From: a virus
Virus record (IMG/VR): IMGVR_UViG_3300008050_007455
Coordinates: 1 to 64,000 of that record
Reading direction: 5' to 3' (one strand)
Length of the DNA stretch: 64,000 nt
A program made the position numbers and the translations under genes. Positions 16,125-43,283 of the stretch are shown here, piece by piece (positions within the stretch are counted from its first letter, which is position 1; every line of letters starts with the position of its first letter). Under the pieces are notes generated by a model. The model worked only from the letters and a program-made list of their open reading frames with translations, had not been told where the DNA came from and did not search any database.

Positions 16125-16126
16125 TT

Positions 16127-18089: not shown

Positions 18090-18090
18090 T

Positions 18091-19380: not shown

Positions 19381-20811
19381 TTAGTATTCTAATTTATGAT
19401 TTAATGTTCTTACTTTGAAATCTGTATCTTTCCAAAATGTGAATCTTTCTCTAGGCATCCAAGTTGAAAATAATTTTTCCATCCCTTCAGTAAAAGTTTT
19501 ACCCATTTGTTCAGCAGTAAACCCAGCTTCATCTCCTTTAGCCCATTCTTTACCTAAATTACCTCTTCTTTTTCTCTCTTCATCACCCATCTTATATAAT
19601 TCAATGATTCTCCATTTAGCATCTCTAAAATCACATCTACTATCCCAAATATAAGGGGTTATTGGTGAACCTACCATCCCCATAGCTTTAGGATAAACCG
19701 GTAGTGCCCATTCTCCATGTTCTGTGTAAGTACCAAACTGGTTGGAAGGCATATCAATTGAATTAACATACCAATTACCTTTATGGTCTACAAATCTCAT
19801 TTGATCTTGCATTCCACCTGTTACATTAGCAATAAAAGGAGTTCCTGTAAGTAAGGATTCAGTTAATGCTAGTCCCCAACCTTCAGCAGATGATAATAAT
19901 ATAACTCCATCCGCCATATTATAAAGATAATTCATATGGGAGTGTGGTAATTTATTCTGAGAAATTACTACAGTTTCATCATCCTCTCCCATTAAATATT
20001 CTACTACTGCCGGTATATCTGTTCCTGCATCACTAACTATATCAGTATGTAAGATAAATAATACTTTCTTTTTTTCTTCTTCTGTTAATGTATCTGTAAA
20101 TAATTTCCAAGCAGAAATAGCATCTGGTATTGATTTTCTTCTAATATTTCTTGAATTAAAAAATAATATAAAGTCTCTTTCAACACCTTTAGTTATTTGT
20201 TTTTTAAAATTATCAAATTCTTCATTTGGATCTGTCATTGTGAAGAATTTTTTAGTATCTAAACCATGAGGAACATATTCAATGACCTTATTTTTAGCTT
20301 TATCACCTAAAACAATTTTATTAATTGCTACAGTTTGTTTGGAAATACCGAATAAGGCATCACAAGATTCATAAAATTCTTCATTATATTGAGGAGCTGG
20401 GAGGTCATCCCAAATGTTGAGGTATACTATTGGAATTTTTGTTCTGATTTCATCTTCCATTTGAAATACCCATTCAAAATATCTTGGGTCAGTAATTAAA
20501 AAAATTGCATCTGGTTTTTCAATTTTTAAAACCTCTCTTAAAATATCAGGATTACCATAACCATCTACAGGATATAGCTTTACATAAGCATCCTCAATCC
20601 CTTCTGATTTATTTACTTCTTCTGATAGATCTTGGACTTTTCCCTTGTCTGGGTGTTGGACAGAACCTGCTAATTGACACCAATTATAATGGTGTGAAGT
20701 ATTAGTAACAATTTCCCTACCAATTTGAGCAACCCCCGAATGTACTCTAATATCATCCGTTAATAATAGAATTTTCTTTCTATAACTTTGTTCAATATAA
20801 CCTTCTTTCAT
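19381..20811 (-). CDS. GT-B glycosyltransferase (GT4-like)
   Basis: 476 residues. LLLTDDIRVHSGVAQIGRE near the N-terminus, FNSRNIRRKSIPDAISAWKL at the start of the second domain, and the donor signature EGWGLALTESLLTGTPFIAN at about 315-335 place it in the GT4 group. It is directly followed by the other GT-B enzyme without spacing. Unknown acceptor; virion protein, host lipopolysaccharide or modified base are the candidates. Confidence 0.85.
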   Translation of the reverse strand: MKEGYIEQSYRKKILLLTDDIRVHSGVAQIGREIVTNTSHHYNWCQLAGSVQHPDKGKVQDLSEEVNKSEGIEDAYVKLYPVDGYGNPDILREVLKIEKPDAIFLITDPRYFEWVFQMEDEIRTKIPIVYLNIWDDLPAPQYNEEFYESCDALFGISKQTVAINKIVLGDKAKNKVIEYVPHGLDTKKFFTMTDPNEEFDNFKKQITKGVERDFILFFNSRNIRRKSIPDAISAWKLFTDTLTEEEKKKVLFILHTDIVSDAGTDIPAVVEYLMGEDDETVVISQNKLPHSHMNYLYNMADGVILLSSAEGWGLALTESLLTGTPFIANVTGGMQDQMRFVDHKGNWYVNSIDMPSNQFGTYTEHGEWALPVYPKAMGMVGSPITPYIWDSRCDFRDAKWRIIELYKMGDEERKRRGNLGKEWAKGDEAGFTAEQMGKTFTEGMEKLFSTWMPRERFTFWKDTDFKVRTLNHKLEY

Positions 20812-29921: not shown

Positions 29922-30656
29922 TTAAAATTCAGTTTCTGCTTTCCTTACCATGTAATATTTTGAAGAAATATCATCTAATTCAAAATCTAATCTTATTAAT
30001 CCCATACTACTTAGTAATAATTTACCACCATCCATATCTTTATTAGCTTGGAGAATGGTTTTAAATGTATCTGAATTAAATGGTAATTTTATATCTGTTT
30101 CTTTAATATCTCCTAATACTTGGTAGGTGATTTTATTATTGTGTCCTGATTCATCTCCAAAAACAAATTCAACAACATTCTCCCCATCTAAATTAGTTGT
30201 AGTTGTTACTAACATATTATCAATTTGGGCTAATGCACTTTTTGCTTTAATAATATTAACAACATCTTCTTGAGTTAAATTTAATTCAACAACCCACTCA
30301 GCTTCATTAACTTCTCCTACTTTATTTATAAGTAATGGGTCTGATAATGCATAATTAAGATTAAAATTAAGATCTGATATTTTTAGTTTTGTATAAATTG
30401 CATTATTTTTTTCTAATTCTAGAAGTAAATCACCATTACAAATACTAATTAAACTATTTAATTTTTTAGTATCATAAATAGCTAATTTACTATCTTCTAG
30501 TTGGAAATTATTGCAAGTTACATTACCAATAACATCTTTAGTAGGAGTCATAAAATCAATATTAAGGGTATTATTTTCAATATTCCATTTTACTGATTCA
30601 TTTGTTCCAAGATAGTATTTATCTATTATACTTTGTACCGTTAATTTATTTATCAT
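29922..30656 (-). CDS. 45: Sliding clamp, T4 gp45-like
   Basis: 244 residues (T4 gp45 is 228). Two-domain clamp pattern; LSSMGLIRLDFELDDISSKY YMVRK at the C-terminus is close to the gp45 C-terminal strand, and the mid-region KAKSALAQIDNMLV fits the second-domain helix. It forms a trimeric ring that holds the polymerase on DNA and in T4 also activates late transcription. It overlaps the carbamoyltransferase gene by 4 bases. Confidence 0.88.
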   Translation of the reverse strand: MINKLTVQSIIDKYYLGTNESVKWNIENNTLNIDFMTPTKDVIGNVTCNNFQLEDSKLAIYDTKKLNSLISICNGDLLLELEKNNAIYTKLKISDLNFNLNYALSDPLLINKVGEVNEAEWVVELNLTQEDVVNIIKAKSALAQIDNMLVTTTTNLDGENVVEFVFGDESGHNNKITYQVLGDIKETDIKLPFNSDTFKTILQANKDMDGGKLLLSSMGLIRLDFELDDISSKYYMVRKAETEF

Positions 30657-32254
30657 TTTTTAAAATATATTTTATCATTAATTACTAAGATATCCACTAT
30701 ATTGTTATCCAAATGTACGAAAGCTTCTTTGGGGTGACAAACTATAGGTTCACCATGTATATTAAAACTTGTATTTAATAAAACAGGGATATTAGTAATA
30801 TCATTAAACTTATTTATTAAATTATAGAACTTAGGATTACTATTTTCAGTTACAATTTGAATTCTTGCTGTTTTATCAATTGGGTGAACCACTGCTGGTA
30901 TTTTATTAATCCATTCTTCCCTAGTATCATAAAGCATGGTCATAAACTCAGCTGTGTATTTAGATTTATTTACATTAAACACTTTATCAGCGTATTCATC
31001 AATAACAACGGGGGCAAAGGGCATAAAATCATTCCGTTGTAATCTATCATTTATTTTTTTGTAGGTGCCTGGTATACTAGGGTCTGCTATAATACTTCTA
31101 TTACATAAAGCTCTAGGACCATGCTCGTACCTTCCTTGAAACCATCCTACTACTTTTCCCTCTTTTAATTCATAAGCTATTTGATTTGGGGAGTAAGGTC
31201 TTATATTATATTTACTTTCATCTATATCAAATTCATCATCAGTATAAGAAGTACCTAAAAAAACATTATCTAATTTAAAAGGTTTAAAGGATGGATTTTT
31301 TAATTTATGGGCTGCTAAGGCTGATCCCAAAGGTAAGCCTTCATCCCCCATTGGAGGGGCAATAAATACTTCTTCTACCCATGAAAGATCATTAATTTTT
31401 TTATTAAGTTTAACATTAGCAAATACCCCACCAGCTGCTGCTACATTTTTCACAGTTGGGTATGTTAGGTGCATATTATTAATTAATTGAAGTATTTTTT
31501 CTTCAAATACTAATTGTCCATTAAATGCTATATCATCTTCTTTATGCTTACAATATTCACTTCCAAATTCTTTAAACCAGAGACTATAAAACTCTTCATA
31601 TACCCCTCCTAATATCTTATTTCCATTATCTCTATCAGTTTTTAATCCTTCAATTGTAATACATTTATTAAAAATATTATATATTTTTTCATTATAAACC
31701 CCATGTGAAGCTCTACCAACAACCTTACCTTCATCTTTTAGTCTTTTAAAACCTAAAAACTCAGTAAGCATAGCATAATAATGTCCTAAAGATTTGTATT
31801 CCAAAGAAATATTTGAAATTTCCTTAAGATCCCCCTCAATTCCTACATACACCCTGCAAGAATATTCTTCACCTGATGCATCAATAGATATTACAAAGGT
31901 ATCTTCTTTAAACCCACTACAATAATAAGCTAAAGCACAATGGCCTAAGTGATGATTTATTTTAATATATTTTTCTTCAGGTAGAGGACCTAACCCAGTA
32001 CCCCTCCAAATTGCATCCATCTGTTTTATGGTGAAATGGGAGGTGATAAAATCAATTCCCTCCCAACTAAACTCTTTAAACCTTAAAACATTTTTTGCAG
32101 AATTATAAGGGAATCTAAAGAAGTCCTGTTGGAAGTCTTTATATGTTCTAATTCTATTAAATCTTTCTTCTTCAAATGCAAATATAGGTTGTCCATCTTC
32201 TAAATAAGCTAAACCACAACTATGCATTCCTCCTGTTATTCCTAGTATTTTCAT
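30653..32254 (-). CDS. NodU/CmcH-family carbamoyltransferase
   Basis: 533 residues, full family length. N-terminal Kae1-like domain: MKILGITGGMHSCGLAYLED and the HHLGHCALAYYCSGF metal/ATP motif. C-terminal domain: GPRALCNRSIIADP and DFMPFAPVV, which bind carbamoyl phosphate. These enzymes transfer carbamoyl to a sugar or antibiotic hydroxyl using carbamoyl phosphate and ATP. It is placed between gp45 and gp43, an odd site for a tailoring enzyme. The likely acceptor is a sugar made by the glycan island, or possibly a modified base. Confidence 0.92.
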   Translation of the reverse strand: MKILGITGGMHSCGLAYLEDGQPIFAFEEERFNRIRTYKDFQQDFFRFPYNSAKNVLRFKEFSWEGIDFITSHFTIKQMDAIWRGTGLGPLPEEKYIKINHHLGHCALAYYCSGFKEDTFVISIDASGEEYSCRVYVGIEGDLKEISNISLEYKSLGHYYAMLTEFLGFKRLKDEGKVVGRASHGVYNEKIYNIFNKCITIEGLKTDRDNGNKILGGVYEEFYSLWFKEFGSEYCKHKEDDIAFNGQLVFEEKILQLINNMHLTYPTVKNVAAAGGVFANVKLNKKINDLSWVEEVFIAPPMGDEGLPLGSALAAHKLKNPSFKPFKLDNVFLGTSYTDDEFDIDESKYNIRPYSPNQIAYELKEGKVVGWFQGRYEHGPRALCNRSIIADPSIPGTYKKINDRLQRNDFMPFAPVVIDEYADKVFNVNKSKYTAEFMTMLYDTREEWINKIPAVVHPIDKTARIQIVTENSNPKFYNLINKFNDITNIPVLLNTSFNIHGEPIVCHPKEAFVHLDNNIVDILVINDKIYFKK

Positions 32255-32258
32255 ATAT

Positions 32259-33191
32259 TTAAAATTTAAAAAACATTTCTTTATAAGGGTTTAAATTTAA
32301 AGTCCACCCTAAATCATTATAAAATCCTTCTAGTTTATTAAGTAATATTGATTCAAAAATCTTCTTCCTATCTGCGTTTTGCTCAATGAATTTGTGGATT
32401 TTTTCAGGTAAATCCCACTCTAAAAAAGCAAGGGCATCAATTTGATATGGGTTAGGTTTCAAATAAATCCATTTAATTTTATCACCTTGACCAATTTGAC
32501 TGTGTGATTTATTTAAACCCCAAAAATTAAGTAAATCATTATATCTAATAACTGCTCTTACAGCTGCTGGGGCTCCTTTAGCTACTACAGTAAACATTTC
32601 ACCCGCTCTTGCTTTTCGTTCAGTATATTTATTTAATGTTTTTACTGATGTTGGATTACCTAATTCTGTAAGAGGAATAGTACCATCTAATATCTGAGTT
32701 TTAAATTCCTTTAATCTTTTATCTATTTCACTTTGTTCTTCTCCTTTTAAAACATCAACTAAAGTTTTATGAAAAAACTTACCTAACACAGGTGGAAAAT
32801 TTGCTTTTTTAAATTCAAGACCTTTAACATCAAGTGATTCTTTTACAATTCCTTCCTGTTTAGTAATCCATTGGGCATATCTTCTTGTTGCTCTAAAATA
32901 AGCTGATCTAATAACACATTCAGTTTTCATTTCTAATCTATGTTGGCCCTTAGCATTAAAACAATCTGTAGCTAAATCACTATAGGAATCAGTAATAATA
33001 TCTTGATACTTTAAAGCAGCTTCTTCTAAAATATTATCCTTTTCCTCACTTGACATTTCTTCAAAGTTAGGGTATAAATGTCTAAGTAAAGGTTCAGCAT
33101 GTATATAAATTGAATCTGTGTCAGAATAAGCTACATAATTTGTATCTTCAGGATCACAAATCCACCAAGGAGTATCTTCTAAATGTTTCAT
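32259..33191 (-). CDS. 43: DNA polymerase family B, C-terminal part (T4 gp43-like)
   Basis: 310 residues. The catalytic motif C VAYSDTDSIYIHAE lies at about residues 17-30, so this ORF has the second catalytic Asp pair and the thumb. The thumb region ends with WTLNLNPYKEMFFKF, and LEWDLPEKIHKFIEQNADRK resembles the clamp-binding end of gp43. It continues the ORF 33188-34870, overlapping it by 4 bases (ATGA). The two must associate to form a working polymerase, unless the split is a sequencing frameshift. Confidence 0.9.
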   Translation of the reverse strand: MKHLEDTPWWICDPEDTNYVAYSDTDSIYIHAEPLLRHLYPNFEEMSSEEKDNILEEAALKYQDIITDSYSDLATDCFNAKGQHRLEMKTECVIRSAYFRATRRYAQWITKQEGIVKESLDVKGLEFKKANFPPVLGKFFHKTLVDVLKGEEQSEIDKRLKEFKTQILDGTIPLTELGNPTSVKTLNKYTERKARAGEMFTVVAKGAPAAVRAVIRYNDLLNFWGLNKSHSQIGQGDKIKWIYLKPNPYQIDALAFLEWDLPEKIHKFIEQNADRKKIFESILLNKLEGFYNDLGWTLNLNPYKEMFFKF

Positions 33192-34870
33192 AATTCTACT
33201 TCATTTTTCATTACTTTATTCATGTGTCTGTTAGCAGCCAATGCAGATTCTTGTATAATACGTTGTCCACTAAGCGTTATAGCTTCAGATAATATAACAT
33301 TCCCATAACGGAATGATCCCAGTGCTGTTGCACCATACAACGAATTAAGTAAAATCTTCATTGTATATTGTTTCATGTGAAATGTAGCACCTAATTCATC
33401 ATTCCCGGATTTAAATGCTTTTTTCATTTCATTTTTATATAAAACTCTTTCATCAAACCACTTTTTTAATATAGTTGATAATACTGATTCACGATTTGTA
33501 TTAAATAAAACCCCATTAGCTGATATAGATAATTCATTTTGTTCTACCATAGCTACTAATCTACCAGCATTAACTTTAGTTCTACTGCGTTTGATATTTT
33601 CAACTATAAATTCTTCATCAGGATCTTTACGTTTTAAATCATTTAATCCTAAACGATTATTTCTATCATCAGCATCTATAATTCTTCCAACCATAGTTTC
33701 TTTACCAATGTTAATAGTCATAATAATTGAAGGATATAGTGAAGTTAAATCCTCATCAAATACATAATTATAAATTCCAGCTTTAGGGCAGAATAAATAA
33801 CCACCAGCATAATTCTTTTTAGATAAAGGATTACGATCTTTAGCAGGTGGTACTATTTTTTTACTTAATAAATAAGCTGAAATAGCTCCATCTTGAGTTT
33901 TAGTATTTGCATATACTTCACTATAATTGTGTTTACCTTTGTGAGCCAAATTCTTTACTAGTGATAGATACTCTAACTTTTCATCTAATACTTTTAAAAT
34001 CTCAACATCCCTAAAGTTATACTGAATGAATTTAAGAGGATCATCATCAAATAATTTATCTAAATTACCATCATATTCAATTTTATTTAATCCAGCATAT
34101 TTTTCACCAATAGCATCTAGTTTAAATGAAGGTTCATCTTTCCAACTAAATTTCTTATGCAATCTCATATAATCTAAAGACTCAACTCCTGCAATTTGTA
34201 TATATTGATCTTTAAACCAAGGTGTTTCTCGAACATAACCTATTGGAGATAAATAACGTGCAACCTCTTGTCCTAACACATTACACATTCTGTAATATAA
34301 GTAGGGAATATCAAAATAATCACTATTCCACCCTACTACAATGTCAGGATCAATTTCTCTAAATCGTTCTAGAAATTTAAGTAATAATTCTTCCTCAGTT
34401 TTACAAGGAATAATTTCTTTAGTTTTTGCTTTTGTTCTTTTAAGGTTAGATTTAGGATCTAAAATTAAAATAGCCCATTCATCTACTTGTTTATCATACC
34501 AAGCAATTGATGTTACTTTTTTAGGGGCTGATTTGATATAATCTTCTGTAAGAGCATCCCCCATTTCAGTCTCAATATCAAAAAATAATTCTCTTTGAGT
34601 CTGTGAGGGTTCATCATTTATCCCATATTTTTCAACTAGAAATTTTTGATATGGAGTCATATCATGGAAATGAAGATTGTAATTATCTGATTTCCAATTA
34701 GATACTTTCTTTAAAGACTCTCCATTTAGGCCAATATGTGTAGCTTGTGAGTCATCACATTCAATATAAGCTTGATTAACCCATTCAACTTTTTGATAAC
34801 CCTCATCATCCCAAAGGTGAATTAGGAATTCATTTCCTTTTTTCCTTTGTGCAAAACATTTTTTATACAA
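33188..34870 (-). CDS. 43: DNA polymerase family B, N-terminal part (T4 gp43-like)
   Basis: 560 residues. Exonuclease motifs: FFDIETEMG (ExoI), VVGWNSDYFDIPY (ExoII) and a YNFRDVEILKVLDEK ExoIII region. Polymerase motif A is DEDLTSLYPSIIMTINIG and motif B is KILLNSLYGATA. The ORF stops shortly after motif B; motif C is in the next ORF. The only plausible start is a TTG at 34868-34870 (no in-frame ATG nearby), preceded by AAAAGTT. Together the two ORFs total about 870 residues, like T4 gp43. Confidence 0.93.
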   Translation of the reverse strand: MYKKCFAQRKKGNEFLIHLWDDEGYQKVEWVNQAYIECDDSQATHIGLNGESLKKVSNWKSDNYNLHFHDMTPYQKFLVEKYGINDEPSQTQRELFFDIETEMGDALTEDYIKSAPKKVTSIAWYDKQVDEWAILILDPKSNLKRTKAKTKEIIPCKTEEELLLKFLERFREIDPDIVVGWNSDYFDIPYLYYRMCNVLGQEVARYLSPIGYVRETPWFKDQYIQIAGVESLDYMRLHKKFSWKDEPSFKLDAIGEKYAGLNKIEYDGNLDKLFDDDPLKFIQYNFRDVEILKVLDEKLEYLSLVKNLAHKGKHNYSEVYANTKTQDGAISAYLLSKKIVPPAKDRNPLSKKNYAGGYLFCPKAGIYNYVFDEDLTSLYPSIIMTINIGKETMVGRIIDADDRNNRLGLNDLKRKDPDEEFIVENIKRSRTKVNAGRLVAMVEQNELSISANGVLFNTNRESVLSTILKKWFDERVLYKNEMKKAFKSGNDELGATFHMKQYTMKILLNSLYGATALGSFRYGNVILSEAITLSGQRIIQESALAANRHMNKVMKNEVEL

Positions 34871-34875
34871 AACTT

Positions 34876-35391
34876 TTATTTATTTTTATTGTTTTTAATT
34901 TCCTCTTCTGTAAAAAACTGCTTAAGATCAGGTCTATAGTAATTAATATTTTTCATTACTTTCCTATCACGTGTTCTATAGACAATATAATACTCACCAA
35001 CCTTCTCATAATGACACGGTTCTTTTTGTTCGGCGGAGCGTTTTTCCACGGTTGCTTGTGCATCCTCTTCGCTTGAACAAGCCTTCGACATATTCGAACC
35101 TTGTACTTCTTGATAGGCTGGCCATATCTTATCCTTAAGACCATGTAACATAGTTCCGTTACCCAACGAAACATAGGCAATGTCACATAAAGCATCAAGA
35201 ACCTCAACAATATCTCCTCTTTCACAGGCATGTTTATACTCCTCAAGTTCTTCGAGGATGAAATCATAAACAAACTGCCATTCTTTCTTTTCGGGAATTG
35301 TAGGTTCATAATTATTTGGTTTACCCATAGTGGAATTAAATTCCTCTACTTCATTTACAAATGGTACATTAAAATCTTTTTCTCTACTCAT
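34876..35391 (-). CDS. MazG-like nucleotide pyrophosphohydrolase
   Basis: 171 residues. FNSTMGKPNNYEP, then FILEELEEYKHACERGDIVE and VLDALCDIAYVSLG (EExxE...ExxD pattern, about 45-80) match the all-alpha NTP-PPase group (MazG/HisE-like). SNMSKACSSEEDAQATVEKR is the conserved C-terminal segment of the phage branch. It probably hydrolyses noncanonical or unwanted dNTPs or (p)ppGpp-related nucleotides. The gene lies next to polymerase and FolE, which suits nucleotide-pool control. Confidence 0.82.
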   Translation of the reverse strand: MSREKDFNVPFVNEVEEFNSTMGKPNNYEPTIPEKKEWQFVYDFILEELEEYKHACERGDIVEVLDALCDIAYVSLGNGTMLHGLKDKIWPAYQEVQGSNMSKACSSEEDAQATVEKRSAEQKEPCHYEKVGEYYIVYRTRDRKVMKNINYYRPDLKQFFTEEEIKNNKNK

Positions 35392-35404: not shown

Positions 35405-36100
35405 TTAAATATTATGTCCTCCGTTATTAATCTTCAGACTATCAAAAAATTCTACTCTTGCTAAATTATCATTATCTCTAAATACTCCTGATGCTTTAGT
35501 TGTTACCATAGCTGCTCCTTCATGTTTTACACCTCTACAGCTTACACAATTATGAGTTCCAACAATAGTAACAATTACACCTCTATTACCTTCAGTAATT
35601 TTACATACTGCATTATGTATTGCTGATGTTAATTGCTCTTGGATAGCTCCTCTACGACCAAATAATTCAACAATTCTATTTAATTTAGATAATCCAATTA
35701 CTTGACCCTCTTCTCCTGCAACATAACCAATATGAACTACTCCTCCAATTGTTTGGTGGTGATGTGAACACATTGATGTTAATGGAATATTTCTTTCAAT
35801 TATAATACCATCATAACCATCGGAAGGAAATGAAGTAATAGGGGACATTGCTGTGTATCTACCAGCCCATAAATCATTTACATATGCTTTAGCTACACGA
35901 CGTGGTGTTTCCATTGAATTGGGATCATTTCTCCAATCGCATTTTAAAGCATCTAAAAACTTACCATAAGCTTCTTCTGCTTCGTCTATCATTTTATCTT
36001 TATCTACTTGTTCTAGGGGGAATCCTTCAGCAACTCCATTTGCATAACCTGTTTGTACTACTTCTAATTCTTTGTGAATTTTTCTTCGTTTATTTTCCAT
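35405..36100 (-). CDS. folE: GTP cyclohydrolase I
   Basis: 231 residues. Zinc site: TSMCSHHHQTIGGVVHIGYV (Cys and His of the CxxH pair) and HNCVSCRGV (second Cys). IGLSKLNRIVELFGRRGAIQEQL is the conserved helix of the family. Most FolE proteins have CEHH; here Ser replaces the Glu. It makes 7,8-dihydroneopterin triphosphate from GTP, the first step to both folate and 7-deazaguanines. With QueD, QueE and QueC nearby it serves preQ0 synthesis. Confidence 0.92.
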   Translation of the reverse strand: MENKRRKIHKELEVVQTGYANGVAEGFPLEQVDKDKMIDEAEEAYGKFLDALKCDWRNDPNSMETPRRVAKAYVNDLWAGRYTAMSPITSFPSDGYDGIIIERNIPLTSMCSHHHQTIGGVVHIGYVAGEEGQVIGLSKLNRIVELFGRRGAIQEQLTSAIHNAVCKITEGNRGVIVTIVGTHNCVSCRGVKHEGAAMVTTKASGVFRDNDNLARVEFFDSLKINNGGHNI

Positions 36101-36121
36101 TTATTATAACTTTTTATTTGA

Positions 36122-36154
36122 TTCAATATACTAATTAATTTGGATAACTCCAAA
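36122..36154 (-). promoter_or_regulatory. Promoter of folE
   Basis: TTTGG at -33 and TATATTGAA at -7 with 20 nt between TTG and the box; ATAAAAAGTTAT lies between it and the folE ATG. Confidence 0.75.
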
Positions 36155-36166
36155 CTAAATTTAAAT

Positions 36167-36409
36167 TTATGCATGAGGATCTGGATCAGTCCACTCTGGT
36201 GTAGCCATTATTGTTAATATTTCTGAATGTGTATAAGGCCCATCGTATGAACTTAAATTAGCAACAAATGAAGGTTCACTACCATCCCATTTAATAACGG
36301 TTTGGGTTTCATCAAGTGACAATCTTAGTGTTTCTTCGGATGTTTCTAAAACTTCATTGAAGTCAACTAATCCTACTTCTGCTATGTTTATAATAATATA
36401 TGTTTTCAT
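36167..36409 (-). CDS. Hypothetical protein, 80 aa, next to LamG tail gene
   Basis: 80 acidic residues: MKTYIIINIAEVGLVDFNEV, then GSEPSFVANLSSYDGPYTHS and a WTDPDPHA end. Beta-rich. It overlaps the LamG gene upstream by 4 bases and is probably a fibre accessory or chaperone, judged only by position. Confidence 0.65.
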   Translation of the reverse strand: MKTYIIINIAEVGLVDFNEVLETSEETLRLSLDETQTVIKWDGSEPSFVANLSSYDGPYTHSEILTIMATPEWTDPDPHA

Positions 36410-38055
36410 AATCCAAATCTTGTTTTTTGTGCGTTGTAGTTTTGGAGGACTTCTGAATCGGATAATGTTTTATTATAGGCCTTAACATTAGCTATTTTCC
36501 CAGGAAAGTATTGTGAATTAGCATCCCTACCTATATAAACCTTTGTGTTATTACTTGCTGGGTTGGTGGTTTGGGATTTTGTGTTTACTTGGACCCCATT
36601 TTCATAAAGCTTCATTGTACTTCCATCTAAAGTTGCAACTATATGTAAGTATTCATCTGTAGCTCTATTGGCAATATAAACAGTTCTGACTGTTGAACCA
36701 TTTCTTATACCAAATCCCCAGCTTTTATTTCCAGCAGAAGGCCAGTCTCTAAAACCAAACAGTGCCCAACCATCCGAATCCCAGCCTGCTGTAGCACCCT
36801 TACTTACTAGGTTAGGGTACTTGGACCCTCCGGTCCAACTACTTGGGAAGTATACCCAACATTCTATGGAGAATACCCCATTTGTAAAATCTAAAGATGA
36901 TTGGTCTCCTAAATCTATATGATCATCACTACCATCAAAATCCCAAATACCACCATAGTTACTATTAAACCCAACCCCATTATTTAAAGCTCCCTCTAAA
37001 GATCCTGTCATTGAATAAGTAGTAGTAGAACCACTTTCATATGATACTAAATTACCAGGATCAAAAGCTCCAACTAAACCATCTGTTACAATATTACTAC
37101 CATAGTAATTTTGATTAACATTTTCTTGAGAATATTCCCCATAAGAAAGTCTAGCTAAAGCTATACTACCTGAAAAGAAATCATTGGGGTTATTACTTTT
37201 ATAATCAAACCCTAAACTAAAAGGTTGATCATTCATACCATTTCCAGTATTAGCATTATTTTCTCCTATAAATTGACCATTAACATAAAACTGTAAATAA
37301 GTTTGATCTGTTGAAGATTTATTTTCCCCCGGTTGGACATTTAATACTGCATAATACCATCTTCCTACTTCTATATTACTTGTTTGTACACTAGTATATG
37401 CTGCTCCTCTTAAAGTATTATCACTATAAATCCATATACCATATTCAGGACCCCAATTATCTGAAAATATGGCTTGTTGGCGACTACCAAGATCCATAGG
37501 TTTAAATAAAACTTCCATTACATTAGGGGCACTATCAGGATTAAAACTACTAACAGTATCTTGCATATATGAAGTAGTCCCATTAAATTCAAAGGATTGT
37601 CCATTAAAGGTTACATCAGTAAGAGGAGTCCAATTATTATTATAACCACTTAAATCATAAAAAGTATTTCCTGTTGTTGGGTATGAACTTACCACCCCGG
37701 CGTTTAATACAAGTCTTAAACCCTCTGTAATCCTATTCCTGGGGGTATTATGTAATATCCAAGTACTAGTACGACCCGCTAAATAATTTAAAGCATCACT
37801 TTTAGTTGAAACACTTCCTCCTAAAGTATTGGCTGCTCTAATTACTTCATCATCAGTAGTAACAATCATAGCAATTGGTCTATTATTTAATCCTAAGGAA
37901 TAAATAGCATATCCACCTGCTGGGGGTTTAATAGTATTATAATATCCAGTTTCAGATGTAGGTCCTAGATTTTCAGTAGGATTTACAGCAAGTGCTAAAT
38001 CACCTCTTCTTAAAGCATCTTTAGTAGGTTGTGAAGTTTTATAAGCGTAGGGCAT
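36406..38055 (-). CDS. Tail fibre/adhesin with two LamG (concanavalin A-like) domains
   Basis: 549 residues from the ATG at 38055 (MPYAYKTSQPTKDALRRG); upstream in-frame starts lie in the phosphoribosyltransferase gene. N-terminal head about 1-130. LamG 1 at about 135-315 (FYDLSGYNNNWTPLTDVTFN; MEVLFKPMDLGSRQQAIFSD). LamG 2 at about 320-549 (WDFDGSDDHIDLGDQSSLDF; FSIECWVYFPSS; KIANVKAYNKTLSDSEVLQN). Such domains bind host glycans. The stop overlaps the 80-aa gene. It sits among nucleotide-metabolism genes, away from other tail genes. Confidence 0.85.
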   Translation of the reverse strand: MPYAYKTSQPTKDALRRGDLALAVNPTENLGPTSETGYYNTIKPPAGGYAIYSLGLNNRPIAMIVTTDDEVIRAANTLGGSVSTKSDALNYLAGRTSTWILHNTPRNRITEGLRLVLNAGVVSSYPTTGNTFYDLSGYNNNWTPLTDVTFNGQSFEFNGTTSYMQDTVSSFNPDSAPNVMEVLFKPMDLGSRQQAIFSDNWGPEYGIWIYSDNTLRGAAYTSVQTSNIEVGRWYYAVLNVQPGENKSSTDQTYLQFYVNGQFIGENNANTGNGMNDQPFSLGFDYKSNNPNDFFSGSIALARLSYGEYSQENVNQNYYGSNIVTDGLVGAFDPGNLVSYESGSTTTYSMTGSLEGALNNGVGFNSNYGGIWDFDGSDDHIDLGDQSSLDFTNGVFSIECWVYFPSSWTGGSKYPNLVSKGATAGWDSDGWALFGFRDWPSAGNKSWGFGIRNGSTVRTVYIANRATDEYLHIVATLDGSTMKLYENGVQVNTKSQTTNPASNNTKVYIGRDANSQYFPGKIANVKAYNKTLSDSEVLQNYNAQKTRFGL

Positions 38056-38062
38056 TTTTTGA

Positions 38063-38072
38063 TTATAAATAT
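38063..38072 (-). promoter_or_regulatory. Candidate late promoter element ATATTTATAA
   Basis: ATATTTATAA, 7 nt before the ATG of the LamG gene; the context ATATTTATAATCAAAAA closely matches the other LamG gene at 2484. Confidence 0.35.
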
Positions 38073-38578
38073 TAGAGGGAATAGATAGCAGGCAAATTTC
38101 TACAATAGCCTTTATCATTATCCATTCCAAACCCAACTAACCACTCATCCCCAATTTCAAAAGCATTAAAAAATGGTGCTTTTGGTTTTGGGCTTGTTTT
38201 TCTAGTAATTAAACTTACAATTGAAATTGACTTTGGATGTTTTACCTCTAAATATTCTATAACAGCCGCCATAGTATTTCCTGTGTCGTAAATATCATCT
38301 ACAATATAAACATGCTTACCTTTTATTGGGGTTTCTAAATCTTTAGTGATTTGGATATCACCCTGTTTATTCTTGCTTAAATACGATTTAACGCGCATAA
38401 AATCACACTCCACATCAATTGGCATAGCCCGCACTAAATCGCTGTAAAATGCAAAACAACCATTAAGTAAGCCAACCATTACCACGGGGGTACGGTCATC
38501 TCTATGCTCAGCTGATATTTGTTTTGCTACTATTTTTGTTTGGATATCTATATCCCTAGATCCTATTAACTCTATCAT
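38072..38578 (-). CDS. Purine phosphoribosyltransferase (HPRT-like)
   Basis: 168 residues from the ATG at 38578; an ATG at 38590 is also possible. VVMVGLLNGCFAFYSDLVRA (pyrophosphate loop region) and the PRPP motif VYIVDDIYDTGNTM at about 92-105 are as in hypoxanthine/guanine phosphoribosyltransferases; LVGFGMDNDKGYCRNLPAIY is the typical C-terminal dimer/base-binding end. It makes a nucleoside monophosphate from a purine-type base and PRPP. In this cluster it could salvage guanine, or act on a 7-deazaguanine base, which would be new. Confidence 0.87.
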   Translation of the reverse strand: MIELIGSRDIDIQTKIVAKQISAEHRDDRTPVVMVGLLNGCFAFYSDLVRAMPIDVECDFMRVKSYLSKNKQGDIQITKDLETPIKGKHVYIVDDIYDTGNTMAAVIEYLEVKHPKSISIVSLITRKTSPKPKAPFFNAFEIGDEWLVGFGMDNDKGYCRNLPAIYSL

Positions 38579-38580
38579 AT

Positions 38581-39426
38581 TTAAACACATCTTTCTGTAT
38601 TAAAAGCCATAATGTGGCTTCTACCTGTAAATCTCCATCCTTTATCTCTTACAAAATTCATTACTACCGGATAAGATTCCATTAAACTTTCTCTATCATC
38701 CCCAGCAGGCATAGCCCATATTTTAGTTGGAAGATAATTCATTAATTCTTCTTTTGTAGGTTGGTCTAAACCATAAAAATTACAAAAACCCTTTTCAAGT
38801 AATTTATCTGCGAGTTGGTCAATAAATTCTTCTACTTCTTCTACCATAGATAATTTATTATCTAATACAGGTTTAAGATGAAAATCAGAGTGATGTATAA
38901 TTGAATCTGCAATAGCTTCAACATTTAACCTTAAACGATTATGAGTTTTAACCATTTTTTCATCTGTTACCTTTCCCGAAGGAGTGAGAGCACCCACAAC
39001 GGGGACACTATTACTAAACTTAGGACTAATGCTAAGCAAATTAATAGGATAATCGGTAGGAAGAAAATGAGATCCCTCAGTTTCAATAGTAATAAAGATA
39101 TTGTTTTCATAGGCAAAGTGTGTTAACTCATTAACTAATTTAGGATGCATTGTTGGTGATCCCCCAGTTAACATCATTTCCTTAATATGAGGATTTTCCT
39201 CATACATTTTGACAATATCATTAAAATTAAATATTCCCTTTTCTGGGTGGATACTAGTGTACCAACTATCGCACCATCCTCCCTCACCAAAATAACATCT
39301 ATGGGTGCAACCTGTTGTTCTAACTACAATAGTAGGGTAACCTTGACGGCTACCCTCACTTTGTACTGCAGTATAAATTTCTAATACTGGTAGTCTTTTA
39401 CTATAATCTTCTATTCTTTTTAACAT
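38581..39426 (-). CDS. queE: 7-carboxy-7-deazaguanine synthase (QueE), radical SAM
   Basis: 281 residues. LEIYTAVQSEGSRQGYPTIV is the QueE start; GCTHRCYFGEGGWCDSWYTS holds three Cys for the Fe-S cluster, but spaced Cx3Cx7C and not Cx3Cx2C. MLTGGSPTMHPKLVNELTHF is the SAM-binding GGxP segment. It converts 6-carboxytetrahydropterin to 7-carboxy-7-deazaguanine. Longer than common QueE (about 210-250), with a C-terminal extension of about 50 residues. Separated by 2 bases from the phosphoribosyltransferase. Confidence 0.9.
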   Translation of the reverse strand: MLKRIEDYSKRLPVLEIYTAVQSEGSRQGYPTIVVRTTGCTHRCYFGEGGWCDSWYTSIHPEKGIFNFNDIVKMYEENPHIKEMMLTGGSPTMHPKLVNELTHFAYENNIFITIETEGSHFLPTDYPINLLSISPKFSNSVPVVGALTPSGKVTDEKMVKTHNRLRLNVEAIADSIIHHSDFHLKPVLDNKLSMVEEVEEFIDQLADKLLEKGFCNFYGLDQPTKEELMNYLPTKIWAMPAGDDRESLMESYPVVMNFVRDKGWRFTGRSHIMAFNTERCV

Positions 39427-39486
39427 ATAATTTTTTTAAGTGGTTTTTTATTCACTATAATACGCAGCATTTTCCAATGCTCCATA

Positions 39487-39978
39487 TTATTCTTCGTATA
39501 TTGATGAATTTTTGTCAGCTTCCCAACATTCTACTTTTACACATTTACATCTACCTCCATCGGTAAGTGCTAAACGTTCATTAAATTTATCATAGACTAA
39601 TTTAGCACATGATTCTGCTCCCATTTTATCCATAATTCTTAAAGCACAAAGTCCTTCCATAGCAGCTCCCTCGAAAAAATCTAAATATGGATCATCTTTT
39701 TCAATTAATAATGTATGATCCCACATAAAATCCATCCATGTTTTTAAACCATTACCAGGTGTAGGTTCTGCATTTATTGCTTTAAATCCTCCATAATCAA
39801 CAATCCAATTCATATCATCCAAACCATCATTGTCATCTAAAGGAGTGTTTGATTCAAACCATACTTTAAATTTTAGAGCATATCCATGTAAAAGTTTACA
39901 ATGTGAGTGTTGTGCTTTGTGCTGTCTAAGAGCTACCGAGTAGTTATCGAATACTTTTGTTGATTTATATTTACCCAT
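39487..39978 (-). CDS. queD: 6-carboxytetrahydropterin synthase (QueD)
   Basis: 163 residues. HSHCKLLHGYALKFKVWFE (about 22-40) has the catalytic Cys and His zinc ligands in the HGY variant found in one QueD subfamily; FMWDHTLLIEKDDP carries the catalytic Asp-His pair; CVKVECWEADKNSSIYE is the terminal segment with the catalytic Glu. It turns dihydroneopterin triphosphate (from FolE) into 6-carboxytetrahydropterin. Overlaps thioredoxin by 8 bases. Confidence 0.9.
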   Translation of the reverse strand: MGKYKSTKVFDNYSVALRQHKAQHSHCKLLHGYALKFKVWFESNTPLDDNDGLDDMNWIVDYGGFKAINAEPTPGNGLKTWMDFMWDHTLLIEKDDPYLDFFEGAAMEGLCALRIMDKMGAESCAKLVYDKFNERLALTDGGRCKCVKVECWEADKNSSIYEE

Positions 39979-40228
39979 TGTACCAATCTAAAATTTGTTG
40001 TTCTGAAAGTTGTCCTACTTTTCTTGAAATTTCCTTACCATCTAAATCTGTTAAGACCATAGTAGGAACACTTTTAATATTATACTGTTGAGGTAGTTGA
40101 GCATCATAATCAACATTTACTTTTCTAACATTAATTCTACCTTGTTTCCCCATTTGCTCAATTAGGGGAGTCATTACTTTACAAGGCCCACACCAAGGAG
40201 CGCTGAAATATAAAATTCCTTTATTCAT
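39971..40228 (-). CDS. Thioredoxin
   Basis: 85 residues, a minimal thioredoxin. Active site APWCGPCKVM at about 9-18, cis-Pro in SVPTMVL at about 52-58, and the usual C-terminal helix. It reduces disulfides in the cytoplasm; the ribonucleotide reductase NrdA of this phage ends CVSCEG and needs such a donor. Slightly shorter than host thioredoxins (about 105). Confidence 0.93.
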   Translation of the reverse strand: MNKGILYFSAPWCGPCKVMTPLIEQMGKQGRINVRKVNVDYDAQLPQQYNIKSVPTMVLTDLDGKEISRKVGQLSEQQILDWYNG

Positions 40229-40245
40229 ATTTTATTATTTTTAAT

Positions 40246-40524
40246 TTATACTAATTCTTCGATTATACCTATTACTTCACTCAATATAAGTAAAATAGTT
40301 GCAAAAACCAAATTAAAGGGAAGGAAGATGTATCCTAATATCCTAACCCCAGATTTGATAAAACTTATTTTTTGATGTAAGTAAGCATCAGGTAATTCTT
40401 TAATATTAGCCCCTGCTAATTGACTAACTATCTTATTTACTTCTTTTTCCACTTTTGGATCATTTAATGGTACAGAAGTGTTAATTGTGGATCTTTTAGC
40501 GTCCATTATTTCTCTATCACTCAT
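40246..40524 (-). CDS. Small membrane-associated protein, 92 aa
   Basis: 92 residues. A polar N-terminal 55 residues is followed by a hydrophobic C-terminal hairpin (about 58-88: SGVRILGYIFLPFNLVFATI, then LLILSEVIGIIEEL). Unrecognised. It lies between queC and thioredoxin, 2 bases after queC. Confidence 0.6.
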   Translation of the reverse strand: MSDREIMDAKRSTINTSVPLNDPKVEKEVNKIVSQLAGANIKELPDAYLHQKISFIKSGVRILGYIFLPFNLVFATILLILSEVIGIIEELV

Positions 40525-40526
40525 AA

Positions 40527-41375
40527 TTATTTAATATTTAATTGTTCCTTCTCATATTCTGAAAGAACTTGTTCGACATATATTTTAGCTGTTTCAAAAT
40601 CAACAGGACCTGTTTCATCAGCATATTGTACTGGGTCAGGTCTACCCAATTTTATAAAGGCTTCAACACGTTCTACAGATGATGCTGATTTATAATCAGA
40701 CCACCCTTCAGGTGTTGGTTTATATGAAGTATTTGTTCTAGCATAAACTTCGTCAAAATCTATTTTTAATTTTTCACATAATTTTTCCCCATCTTGTAAA
40801 ATAGTAAATTTATCACCTTTAAGATAAGGTGTATAGTACCCTACTCTTTCAGCATCCCAATTACCCTCTCTAAAAGCATGATCATCGGCATCTCTAAATT
40901 CTTGCCTACAATCAGGATAGATATCATGATCACCTGCATGAATCCCTAAAGCAATTGATGTTGATTCTTCTGTTCTATTTGCTACGGATAATGCTACTGC
41001 TTGAGTAATTGATGAGAATATTTTATTTCTATTAGGCACTACTGTGGCTTTCATATTTTCAGCAGCATAATGTCCTTCTGGGACTTCATCTCCCCCTTCA
41101 ACTAAAGCTGAGTCGAGAAGTTCTACTAGACCATATAATGTAATTACTTGAAAAGTTACATTATGACCATTTCTTTTTAAATAATCTACTAATGCTCTTG
41201 CTCTTTTGAGTTCAACCTTATGTTTTTGGCCATAATCAAAAGACAAAGCTGTTACAGTTTGAAATTTATCAAGACATTTAAGTAATAATGTACTTGAATC
41301 CATACCACCTGAAAGTGATACTACTGCATGTTTTGGACGTTGTGAGTCTTTAAAATTTAATTCCAATTGTGTCAT
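40527..41375 (-). CDS. queC: QueC-like 7-cyano-7-deazaguanine synthase lacking the zinc cysteines
   Basis: 282 residues. PP-loop VVSLSGGMDSSTLL (about 19-32), LSFDYGQKHKVEL, VVPNRNKIFSSI and IALGIHAGDHDIYPDCR, all QueC hallmarks. The C-terminal region, usually WSCY...CGxCxxC, reads NTSYKPTPEGWSDYKSASS followed by VERVEAFIKLGRPDP: all four zinc-binding Cys are absent. It should adenylate 7-carboxy-7-deazaguanine and give preQ0, or stop at the amide. Longer than bacterial QueC (about 230). Confidence 0.9.
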   Translation of the reverse strand: MTQLELNFKDSQRPKHAVVSLSGGMDSSTLLLKCLDKFQTVTALSFDYGQKHKVELKRARALVDYLKRNGHNVTFQVITLYGLVELLDSALVEGGDEVPEGHYAAENMKATVVPNRNKIFSSITQAVALSVANRTEESTSIALGIHAGDHDIYPDCRQEFRDADDHAFREGNWDAERVGYYTPYLKGDKFTILQDGEKLCEKLKIDFDEVYARTNTSYKPTPEGWSDYKSASSVERVEAFIKLGRPDPVQYADETGPVDFETAKIYVEQVLSEYEKEQLNIK

Positions 41376-41406
41376 TTTTATTTATTTATATTTGCCAGGT
41401 ATTTTA

Positions 41407-41424
41407 AGCGTATAGGCTAACGCT
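41407..41424. repeat. Inverted repeat AGCGT/ACGCT upstream of queC
   Basis: A 5-bp stem with an 8-nt loop in the 50-base queC leader. No T-run. It does not match the preQ1 riboswitch classes I can recall. Possibly part of a leader structure; weak evidence. Confidence 0.3.
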
Positions 41425-41425
41425 A

Positions 41426-41647
41426 TTACATATCAATTAATCTATGTTGTTTTTGTTCAGTAACCACATCAAAATGAGTACCTTGTATTTTTACACTTCC
41501 TCCCTGTTTGAGAATTTTTCTAAATAATCCTTCTTCTCTATCAGTCCAAAATTCACTAAGGGCAATAACTTCATCTTTACTTGCAGGTCTTTTATTTTTA
41601 TTAATAAATATTTTTTGGTTAGACCTTATTGATTGTTTTTTTAACAT
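41426..41647 (-). CDS. Hypothetical basic protein, 73 aa
   Basis: 73 residues, basic (LKKQSIRSNQKIFINKNKRP), then EVIALSEFWTDREEGLFRKI and a beta end (GTHFDVVTEQKQHR). No family recognised. It lies between queC and the dpdA-like gene in the presumed modification operon. Confidence 0.65.
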   Translation of the reverse strand: MLKKQSIRSNQKIFINKNKRPASKDEVIALSEFWTDREEGLFRKILKQGGSVKIQGTHFDVVTEQKQHRLIDM

Positions 41648-41651
41648 ATCT

Positions 41652-41846
41652 TTATTCTTCTACAAATTCAACATCACCATAATCATCAATTGGTTTATCT
41701 CTTACTAATTCCCAATCGGCATCATCTATAATTTCTTGTTGGATATCTTCATCGCCTGTTTTCCATTGTGCTAGTTGTTCATCTGTTAACACATACTCTT
41801 CCCATCTGTAGTTTGCGTAATTTACTGTTCTTGTTAATTTTGCCAT
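41652..41846 (-). CDS. Hypothetical acidic protein, 64 aa
   Basis: 64 residues, acidic, Trp/Tyr rich at the start (MAKLTRTVNYANYRWEEYVL), with EIIDDADWELV in the middle. No recognised family. Separated by 4 bases from the gene downstream and 1 base from that upstream. Confidence 0.65.
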   Translation of the reverse strand: MAKLTRTVNYANYRWEEYVLTDEQLAQWKTGDEDIQQEIIDDADWELVRDKPIDDYGDVEFVEE

Positions 41847-41847
41847 A

Positions 41848-42027
41848 TTACATGAATTTTGGTATTCTAAATTTTAAAATTGGAGTACCATTAATGGTGG
41901 GTTGACCCATTTCATCAATTCCAATTTCTTTTACTTTTACTGGTTTGTTCCTAAATCTTCCAGTCATTATAGTATCACCTATTTTTATGGGGATTTTGAA
42001 ATAATCTTCTATATATGTTGCTTTCAT
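41848..42027 (-). CDS. Conserved small protein, 59 aa
   Basis: From the ATG at 42027 (an in-frame TTG two codons earlier is rejected). 59 residues: KIPIKIGDTIMTGRFRNKPV, then KVKEIGIDEMGQPTINGTPI. The pattern is a short SH3-like barrel seen in T4-like phage proteins of unknown role. Overlaps the dpdA-like stop. Confidence 0.7.
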   Translation of the reverse strand: MKATYIEDYFKIPIKIGDTIMTGRFRNKPVKVKEIGIDEMGQPTINGTPILKFRIPKFM

Positions 42028-42815
42028 ATGCAATTAATTTTTCTAAATTTATCAATATTATATTCTAATAGATCATAATCAACCTGGCTATCTAACATAT
42101 AGAAATAATCATTCATATTTGCTTTTGGTTTTTTAAATAAACCTGAGTGAGTATATTGAATGTTTTCTAAAGTTGCCATTACGGGGTTTGATGTGTCAAT
42201 TGATTCAATACAATTTATATCTTTATACCACCCAAATTCTTGGGGAACCGCACAACCTAATAAATGAACTCTATCATCTTGTTTTAATTCTCCAGTTTTA
42301 AGTAAAGTAGATATTACAAATAATCTTCCTAAAGCTTTTCCTAAATCTTTGTTGGGGTGAGTACAAATATCATTATAATAATTAGCTCCATAAGAAAAAC
42401 ATATTTTACCATACCCCAAATTTTTATAAGCTTTAACACATTGAGCTGCTTCATGTAGTGTTTTTGCTTGAACTACTGCTACTTTTTCTGTATTTTTGGG
42501 GAAATCATATAAATTCCAAATTTCAGCATTTTGAATTGACTCTATACAGTTTTCCCAAACATCAGGTACTATAAATTCATTAGGTTCTAATTCATTAACC
42601 CAATGTATAAGACGTTCATGTGTATAAGCTTCACCCAATTCATGAAGTGAATTATCCATTATAATATAACGACCCTGTCTTTTAGATTCTAAAAAATATT
42701 CTAAATAACCAGGTTCTTCATCCAATAAATGAGGAAGACAGTAGTCATAATCATTAAAACGTCTACTATCGTTTAGGAGGCATAAGGGTGTTTCATGACT
42801 TATTTTTATTACCAT
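42024..42815 (-). CDS. DpdA/tRNA-guanine transglycosylase-like base-exchange protein
   Basis: 263 residues with a TIM-barrel-like pattern. YIIMDNSLHELGEAYTHERL (about 51-70), EFIVPDVWEN, VAVVQAKTLHEAAQCVKAY, ICFSYG, HLLGCAVPQEFGWY and ESIDTSNPV follow the order of TGT/DpdA enzymes, with candidate catalytic Asp in MDN, PDV and IDTSNP. It lacks the TGT C-terminal zinc site. DpdA exchanges guanine in DNA for a 7-deazaguanine. The context (FolE, QueD, QueE, QueC in the same 7 kb) supports this more than the sequence alone. Confidence 0.65.
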   Translation of the reverse strand: MVIKISHETPLCLLNDSRRFNDYDYCLPHLLDEEPGYLEYFLESKRQGRYIIMDNSLHELGEAYTHERLIHWVNELEPNEFIVPDVWENCIESIQNAEIWNLYDFPKNTEKVAVVQAKTLHEAAQCVKAYKNLGYGKICFSYGANYYNDICTHPNKDLGKALGRLFVISTLLKTGELKQDDRVHLLGCAVPQEFGWYKDINCIESIDTSNPVMATLENIQYTHSGLFKKPKANMNDYFYMLDSQVDYDLLEYNIDKFRKINCI

Positions 42816-42881: not shown

Positions 42882-43283
42882 TTAAAAATTAATTACTTCC
42901 GAGTGTTTTTTTGTTGGCCAATAATCATCCCCATAGTTGGTGCATATTTCTTCTCCAACTCTAATATCTTTTAAAGCAATAAAATCAAAATGATATGGAA
43001 TATCTTCTGTATTATACCAAGTTGCATTATCATTTCTATCGTGATTGTATATACATCCAAAACCTAAAGGTAATACATGCTCTGCCCCATCTTCCATTGA
43101 AACTCCTCTAGGATAATTAAATACATAATCCTGTAATTCAAAACTAACATGATTTTTTGGGCTACCGGTTTTTATACAATAACACCTTTCAATAAGTTCT
43201 CCCTTTTTAATAGGTTTATCTGTGAAAACCCCATAACCTTTTTCACCAGTCCACTTTACATATAAATTATTTGGAACTTTCAT
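42882..43283 (-). CDS. SET-domain protein (lysine methyltransferase-like)
   Basis: 133 residues, a minimal SET domain. GYGVFTDKPIKKGELIE at the N-terminus, GFGCIYNHDRNDNATW (the NHxxxxN-type SAM-binding core) at about 74-89 and FDFIALKDIRVGEEICTNYG with DDYW at the end (the GExxxxxY motif). Close in size to the PBCV-1 viral SET protein. It would methylate lysine residues on a host or phage protein. It has no pre- or post-SET zinc clusters. Confidence 0.87.
   Translation of the reverse strand: MKVPNNLYVKWTGEKGYGVFTDKPIKKGELIERCYCIKTGSPKNHVSFELQDYVFNYPRGVSMEDGAEHVLPLGFGCIYNHDRNDNATWYNTEDIPYHFDFIALKDIRVGEEICTNYGDDYWPTKKHSEVINF

What the first reader, a model, noticed from the sequence alone, without database searches (positions are those of the whole stretch)
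35405..42815. Nearly complete 7-deazaguanine DNA modification cassette in a T4-like phage
FolE, QueE, QueD, QueC and a DpdA/TGT-like base-exchange protein lie within 7.4 kb, all on the minus strand. Known pathway: FolE, QueD, QueE and QueC make preQ0 from GTP, and DpdA places a 7-deazaguanine in DNA. The phage could thus replace some of its guanines and evade host restriction. A phosphoribosyltransferase, a thioredoxin and four small unknown genes are interleaved and may add steps. No QueF or other tailoring enzyme was seen in the window.
Basis: partly seen in the sequence, partly recalled or inferred. Interest (0 to 1): 0.85.

Follow-up and report, generated by a model that had tools for sequence, protein, structure and literature searches.

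The report
Phage guanine-swapping cassette with guanine recycling
This marine phage carries the genes to make a modified guanine and swap it into its own DNA, probably to hide from host defences, and the cassette also holds an enzyme that probably recycles the ordinary guanine pulled out; related cassettes are common in aquatic viruses, but the recycling step seems not to have been described.

Summary
The finding is real. FolE, QueE, QueD, QueC and a TGT/DpdA-fold protein lie at the stated places, all on the minus strand. The last, unnamed by Pfam and NCBIfam, gives a confident AlphaFold2 model (pLDDT 93, pTM 0.90); its 50 best PDB matches are all tRNA-guanine transglycosylases, and Asp54, Asp85 and Asp207 are invariant in 34 relatives. 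Its closest relatives in isolates are the 'DNA guanine transglycosylase' of Flavobacterium phage immuto and a protein of Campylobacter phages CP220/CPt10, whose dG is reported 100% replaced by dADG. As a cassette it belongs to a known kind, with several hundred relatives in IMG/VR.

(1) The 'phosphoribosyltransferase' is an HGPRT; the same slot holds HGPRT or a Gpt-type enzyme in 53 of 59 distinct cassettes, never both. In unrelated 7-deazaguanine phages a Gpt-type domain is fused to FolE, or lies beside FolE or QueE. Best inference: it recycles the guanine that DpdA ejects. (2) QueC has lost all four zinc cysteines in nearly all of this branch but keeps its catalytic motifs; zinc-less QueC also occurs in marine archaea and planctomycetes.

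Predicted base: dPreQ0, possibly dADG. No chemistry was tested.

The parts
42024..42815 (-). DpdA-like DNA-guanine transglycosylase (263 aa)
   Evidence: AF2 pLDDT 93.4, pTM 0.90; top 50 PDB matches all TGT; D54, D85, H184, E193, D207 invariant; 38% to immuto 'DNA guanine transglycosylase', 37% to CP220/CPt10
40527..41375 (-). QueC-type enzyme (282 aa) without the four zinc cysteines; expected to make preQ0 from CDG
   Evidence: PF06508 5e-37; catalytic motifs kept, zinc motif lost; fold nearest 2pg3/3bl5 QueC
39487..39978 (-). QueD-like 6-carboxytetrahydropterin synthase with an atypical metal site
   Evidence: phrog_2389 2e-31; alignment
38581..39426 (-). QueE-like radical SAM enzyme
   Evidence: phrog_2076 1e-44; TIGR03365 4e-14, below cut-off
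38072..38590 (-). HGPRT-type guanine/hypoxanthine phosphoribosyltransferase, proposed guanine salvage enzyme
   Evidence: TIGR01203 6e-44; slot held by HGPRT or a Gpt-type enzyme in 53 of 59 cassettes
35405..36100 (-). FolE, GTP cyclohydrolase I
   Evidence: PF01227 9e-41, phrog_2197 3e-56
39971..40228 (-). Thioredoxin, next to QueD in nearly all relatives (48 of 51 loci have one)
   Evidence: PF00085 2e-17
40246..40524 (-). Small protein of unknown function, conserved in many relatives (34 of 51 loci)
34876..35391 (-). MazG/PRA-PH-like nucleotide pyrophosphohydrolase beside FolE; PRA-PH also near FolE in immuto, an annotated MazG-like protein beside FolE in phiST
   Evidence: PF01503 4e-10
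41426..41647 (-). Small unknown ORF between QueC and DpdA
   Evidence: kept in close relatives
41652..41846 (-). Small unknown ORF between QueC and DpdA
   Evidence: kept in close relatives
41848..42033 (-). Small unknown ORF overlapping the end of the DpdA-like gene
   Evidence: found in some close relatives
36406..38136 (-). Lectin-like (Laminin_G_3) ORF inside the cassette, probably an unrelated passenger
   Evidence: PF13385 2e-31; absent or divergent in relatives
36167..36409 (-). Small unknown ORF next to the lectin-like gene
   Evidence: a homologue lies beside lectin-like ORFs in L186, outside any cassette

Best explanation
A phage-encoded 7-deazaguanine DNA-modification pathway with a built-in guanine salvage step. 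GTP goes by FolE, QueD and QueE to CDG and by QueC to preQ0. The DpdA-like enzyme then opens the glycosidic bond of a guanine already in the phage DNA, with Asp207 as nucleophile by analogy to TGT, and puts preQ0 (or ADG) in its place, releasing free guanine. The HGPRT, or in sister phages a Gpt-type enzyme, joins that guanine to PRPP to give GMP. This removes a competing product and returns guanine to the GTP pool that feeds FolE. The modified DNA resists host nucleases. Shown here: genes, fold, conserved residues, conserved order, alternation of the two guanine PRTs in one slot, and PRT-FolE fusions in other phages. Inferred: DNA as substrate, the exact base, the extent of replacement, the salvage role, protection.
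For: TGT fold and invariant aspartates. All four preQ0 enzymes present. Conserved order in dozens of contigs. Relatives in CP220/CPt10, reported as fully dADG-modified, and in immuto. HGPRT or Gpt type in 53 of 59 distinct cassettes, never both, at least 7 changes of label on the DpdA tree. Que genes within 10 kb of 71 of 80 HGPRT loci and 69 of 80 Gpt-type loci, most exceptions being cut at the contig edge. Gpt-type domain fused to FolE in QueE-QueC-QueD cassettes of Vibrio, Sphingomonas, Stenotrophomonas and Pseudomonas phages, and beside queE or folE in others.
Against: No chemical or biochemical data for this phage. Six of 59 cassettes lack a recognisable PRT, and three contigs (156, 161 and 122 kb) have the cassette but no PRT domain at all. 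Three contigs, one of 173 kb, carry HGPRT without a detectable DpdA. No Gpt-type domain was detected in CP220, which is fully modified. Substrate specificity of the PRTs is read from family membership only; the Gpt-type and fused domains are short and score below the curated cut-off. QueD and QueC have atypical metal sites.
Confidence: 0.68

Rival explanations
1. The PRT is a general purine scavenger of these phages that happens to sit in the same neighbourhood; [quoted passage not shown]
For: HGPRT occurs without DpdA in three contigs of a related phage group; some cassettes have no PRT.
Against: Two different guanine PRTs replace each other in one slot; fusion of a Gpt-type domain to FolE inside que cassettes of unrelated phages; 34 of 40 phage records with the Gpt-type domain belong to groups that carry que genes.
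Confidence: 0.28
2. The inserted base is ADG (dADG) and not preQ0, either because this QueC stops at the amide or because the enzyme prefers ADG, as reported for Campylobacter CP220.
For: Nearest characterised relatives CP220/CPt10 carry dADG; QueC lacks the zinc motif.
Against: CP220 QueC keeps its zinc motif, so zinc loss does not explain dADG there. Immuto has a 67%-identical zinc-less QueC together with QueF, which needs preQ0. Zinc-less QueC sits near FolE and QueD in marine archaea.
Confidence: 0.27
3. Nucleotide route: the PRT turns preQ0 or ADG into a nucleotide, ribonucleotide reductase and kinases make the deoxy-triphosphate, and the polymerase inserts it, as once proposed for Campylobacter phages.
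For: A PRT and a ribonucleotide reductase are encoded; the route was proposed before a DpdA was recognised there (PMC6884629).
Against: A conserved TGT-fold enzyme is present in all the cassettes and in CP220, which makes the route unnecessary. HGPRT-type catalysis uses the purine N7, which 7-deazaguanines lack (own knowledge).
Confidence: 0.06
4. The cassette raises queuosine in host tRNA during infection; the TGT-like protein acts on tRNA.
For: Same pathway up to preQ0; the fold is that of tRNA-TGT.
Against: Homologues occur in phages with fully modified DNA; the protein is 263 aa against 375 for E. coli TGT; no QueF, which queuosine needs, in near relatives.
Confidence: 0.05

Closest known systems
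Flavobacterium phage vB_FspM_immuto_2-6A deazaguanine genes (NC_055915)
   Same: DpdA homologue (38%), zinc-less QueC (67%), QueD-QueE-PRT-FolE-PRA-PH-DpdA block, Gpt-type PRT in the same slot
   Different: Has QueF and a formyltransferase, so probably a preQ1-type product; QueC lies apart; family A polymerase; Gpt type instead of HGPRT
Campylobacter phages CP220/CPt10 (Firehammervirus), dADG in place of all dG; 'DpdA3' in Cui et al. 2023 (from memory, paper not held)
   Same: DpdA homologue over full length (37%), QueD and QueC present
   Different: Genes scattered; QueC keeps its zinc motif; no Gpt-type domain detected
Queuovirinae-type cassettes (CAjan group, Vibrio VpKK5, Sphingomonas MMDA13) with DpdA1
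   Same: FolE-QueD-QueE-QueC-DpdA; dPreQ0 or dG+ type products known in the group (PMC6884629); VpKK5 and MMDA13 also carry a guanine-PRT-like domain, fused to FolE
   Different: DpdA1 is a different subfamily not matched by sequence; the CAjan-type FolE (KurtStettler) has no PRT domain
Cellulophaga phage phiST
   Same: Distant DpdA homologue (24%), QueD-QueE-FolE-MazG order, Gpt-type PRT elsewhere in the genome
   Different: No QueC in the block

Membership tests
DpdA (DNA-guanine transglycosylase, TGT superfamily) | TGT-type TIM barrel | tested here: met
DpdA (DNA-guanine transglycosylase, TGT superfamily) | Catalytic aspartates in the TGT order | tested here: met
   D54, D85, D207 invariant in 34 sequences; correspondence to TGT residues by motif order, not by superposition
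DpdA (DNA-guanine transglycosylase, TGT superfamily) | Exchanges guanine in DNA for a 7-deazaguanine | not testable with these tools
   needs biochemistry
DpdA3 subfamily (CP220 type) | Closest relatives in phages with complete dG replacement | tested here: met
   37-39% over the full length to CP220/CPt10 and relatives; the subfamily name is from memory (paper not held)
DpdA3 subfamily (CP220 type) | Complete replacement of dG in virion DNA | not testable with these tools
   needs LC-MS of virion DNA
Phage preQ0 group (PMC6884629 group 2) | DpdA + FolE + QueD + QueE + QueC, no amidotransferase or QueF | tested here: met
Canonical QueC (PF06508 cluster 1 of PMC13329287) | SGGxDS, YxQxHxxE, VPxRN, YPDC motifs | tested here: met
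   kept in 103-105 of 105 zinc-less QueC
Canonical QueC (PF06508 cluster 1 of PMC13329287) | C(x)8CxxCxxC zinc motif | tested here: not met
   all four cysteines lost; so not filed as canonical QueC but as a zinc-less QueC-type enzyme
HGPRT (TIGR01203) | Curated score cut-off | tested here: inconclusive
   149.7 bits against 150
HGPRT (TIGR01203) | PRPP motif DD..D[ST]G and KSY loop | tested here: met
HGPRT (TIGR01203) | Uses guanine as substrate | not testable with these tools
   needs an assay

The most novel reading that the evidence does not exclude
Phage base-exchange DNA modification has a dedicated salvage step: a guanine phosphoribosyltransferase (HGPRT, a Gpt-type enzyme, or a Gpt-type domain fused to FolE) captures the guanine expelled by DpdA and returns it to the GTP pool from which preQ0 is made, which drives the exchange forward and makes modification of large parts of a genome affordable.
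Probability: 0.55. Interest if true: 0.68.

Novelty: new variant of a known kind. Interest (0 to 1): 0.52.

Why it matters
If exchange were complete in a phage like this, about 50,000 guanines would be expelled per genome copy (about 164 kb at 30.5% GC). Where they go is not addressed in the papers I could search. The repeated pairing of a guanine PRT with FolE and DpdA in unrelated phages makes that question testable with knock-outs and LC-MS. The zinc-less QueC bears on which QueC residues are really needed, since the 2026 family paper treats the zinc motif as a hallmark.

Tried and rejected
Idea that zinc loss in QueC explains an ADG end product: rejected as a general rule, because CP220 (dADG) keeps zinc, immuto combines the zinc-less QueC with QueF, and zinc-less QueC sits near FolE and QueD in marine archaea. 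Idea that HGPRT is exclusive to the cassette: rejected, three contigs have it without DpdA. Sequence comparison of the DpdA-like profile with E. coli TGT and with CAjan-type DpdA was uninformative, so the fold carries the argument. Search for tailoring enzymes (QueF, formyltransferase): none found in the own record or near relatives; the weak QueF hit in G005 is below cut-off, and FolE proteins give similar weak QueF hits. The NodU-like carbamoyltransferase 30653-32254 as a base-tailoring enzyme: no thymidylate-synthase-type hydroxymethylase in the own record or the closest relatives, so not adopted. Counts of 4-bp palindromes show no strong avoidance and were not used. The papers that define DpdA3 and the CP220 chemistry are not held; PMC8306585 and PMC6884629 were used for the reported facts.

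Full report
OBSERVATION. Profile scans identify FolE, QueE, QueD, QueC, thioredoxin and a phosphoribosyltransferase. The source record is a 64,045-bp viral contig, so the window is essentially all that is held of this phage. Relatives of 158-164 kb exist. The replication genes are T4-like: family B polymerase, gp32, DnaB-type helicase, RecA-like protein, ribonucleotide reductase. GroEL, QueC and QueD point to Flavobacterium phage immuto as the nearest isolate, so a Bacteroidota host is likely (inference).

THE BASE-EXCHANGE ENZYME. 42024-42815 has no Pfam or NCBIfam name. A 30-sequence alignment gave an AlphaFold2 model with pLDDT 93.4 and pTM 0.90. Foldseek against the PDB lists TGTs for all 50 top places, E 3e-8 to 5e-7. 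The sequence profile also touches PDB 7ui4, a DNA-guanine transglycosylase, at E 0.0047. Asp54, Asp85, His184, Glu193 and Asp207 are invariant even when CP220, CC_R7 and phiST are included. By motif order Asp54 and Asp207 correspond to the general base and the nucleophile of TGT; this assignment is inference. Best relatives in isolates: immuto (38%, annotated DNA guanine transglycosylase) and Campylobacter CP220/CPt10 (37%). The literature held here reports that CP220 and CPt10 have 100% of dG replaced by dADG (PMC8306585), and that in 2019 no DpdA was recognised in Campylobacter phages (PMC6884629). From memory, Cui et al. 2023 later named such proteins DpdA3; that paper is not held.

CONSERVED CASSETTE. 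In 51 loci of at least 15 kb around DpdA relatives, QueC and QueD are present in all, QueE and thioredoxin in 48, FolE in 43. The order DpdA-QueC-small-Trx-QueD-QueE-PRT-FolE-MazG-polymerase is kept over wide divergence.

THE PHOSPHORIBOSYLTRANSFERASE. The window's enzyme is an HGPRT by NCBIfam (149.7 bits, cut-off 150). In other cassettes the same slot holds a different enzyme, best matched by xanthine phosphoribosyltransferase PRK09177, the Gpt type. On 59 distinct cassettes, 36 have HGPRT, 17 the Gpt type, none both, 6 neither. Exclusion by Fisher test is 4e-10, not corrected for descent. On the DpdA tree the HGPRT label needs at least 7 changes, at least 6 of them forced by well-supported branches, so the swap happened repeatedly. 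Starting from the PRTs, 71 of 80 HGPRT loci and 69 of 80 Gpt-type loci have que genes within 10 kb. All 11 Gpt-type exceptions and six of nine HGPRT exceptions lie near the contig edge on the QueE side. Three HGPRT exceptions are real (G014-G016).

FUSIONS IN UNRELATED PHAGES. A tblastn of the immuto Gpt-type enzyme against 50,697 phage records found 40. Thirty-four belong to groups in which a representative carries que genes; I did not check every record. In Vibrio VpKK5, Sphingomonas MMDA13, Stenotrophomonas ply2008005c and Pseudomonas Baskent_P4_1 the match is the first ~115 residues of a ~300-residue FolE ORF inside a QueE-QueC-QueD-FolE cassette, followed by an annotated DpdA/TGT gene in the first three. 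That domain keeps RGG, DD..D[ST]G and the W..PWE motif and matches the Gpt-type profile at 98% probability, E 1.6e-14. In Callisto gpt is next to queE, in MaInes next to folE. The MMDA13 paper has no mention of a phosphoribosyl domain, and three literature searches found no paper on this pairing; the library lacks most subscription papers.

INTERPRETATION. DpdA-type exchange releases one guanine per modified base. HGPRT and Gpt-type enzymes both turn guanine and PRPP into GMP. Two different guanine PRTs replacing each other in one slot, and a fusion to FolE, the enzyme that consumes GTP for this pathway, are best explained by recycling of expelled guanine. Against it: some cassettes lack the PRT, some phages have HGPRT without DpdA, and no assay exists. 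I put the salvage role at 0.55-0.6 and the DNA modification itself near 0.9.

ZINC-LESS QUEC. The window's QueC keeps SGGMDS, YGQKHKVE, VPNRN and YPDC, and the Tyr equivalent to E. coli Y189, but all four zinc cysteines are gone; the segment reads NTSYKPTPEGWSDYKSASSVER. Of 120 distinct QueC in the fetched loci, 105 match this pattern, 14 are near variants or truncated ends, and 1 has zinc. Among isolates only immuto shows this C-terminus. The fold is QueC (2pg3, 3bl5; model pLDDT 78). Zinc-less QueC also occurs in Poseidoniales/Thalassarchaeaceae archaea near FolE and QueD, in Pirellulaceae and in a Thiotrichales genome, so it is probably active. The passages I read of the 2026 QueC family paper list the zinc motif as a hallmark and do not describe this branch.

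PRODUCT. No QueF or formyltransferase was found in the own record or in near relatives. The simplest prediction is dPreQ0, as in CAjan and Rosebush (PMC6884629). dADG, as in CP220, is the main alternative.

VERDICT. As a cassette it is a further member of a known kind. The guanine-PRT link and the zinc-less QueC are the parts that a specialist would find new and testable.

Noticed in passing
32259-34870 (-): Family B DNA polymerase split into two ORFs with an ATGA overlap; the split is shared by near relatives (some with 200-640 bp between the halves), while far relatives have one fused gene.
   Followed up: partly
42882-43283 (-): SET-domain protein (PF00856, 1e-12) next to the DpdA-like gene; present in only a few relatives.
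   Followed up: no
39487-39978 (-): QueD looks swapped: 39-45% to close relatives whose other cassette genes are 80-95% identical, but 69-76% to distant loci such as L050, L053, L096, L109. This QueD type lacks two of the three zinc histidines seen in CAjan-type QueD.
   Followed up: partly
30653-32254 (-): NodU-like carbamoyltransferase (phrog_1601, 1e-90) just downstream of the polymerase; related enzymes carbamoylate hydroxymethylcytosine in phages (PMC8670742), but no thymidylate-synthase homologue was found in the own record or the closest relatives.
   Followed up: partly
L298 to L311 (genome contigs): Zinc-less QueC in Poseidoniales/Thalassarchaeaceae archaea (near FolE and QueD), Pirellulaceae planctomycetes and a Thiotrichales genome that also has phage-like QueD and QueE.
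   Followed up: partly
L186, L188, L191: Related marine phages with an HGPRT in another gene context and no DpdA found in up to 173 kb.
   Followed up: partly
11414-20811 (-): Island of glycosyltransferase, epimerase and UDP-sugar dehydrogenase genes, unusual in size for a phage.
   Followed up: no
36406-38136 (-): Lectin-like (Laminin_G_3) 576-codon ORF inside the metabolic cassette; its TTG start overlaps the HGPRT gene, so the true start is probably further downstream.
   Followed up: no
27122-28756 (-): Phage-encoded GroEL, 58% identical to that of Flavobacterium phage immuto.
   Followed up: no
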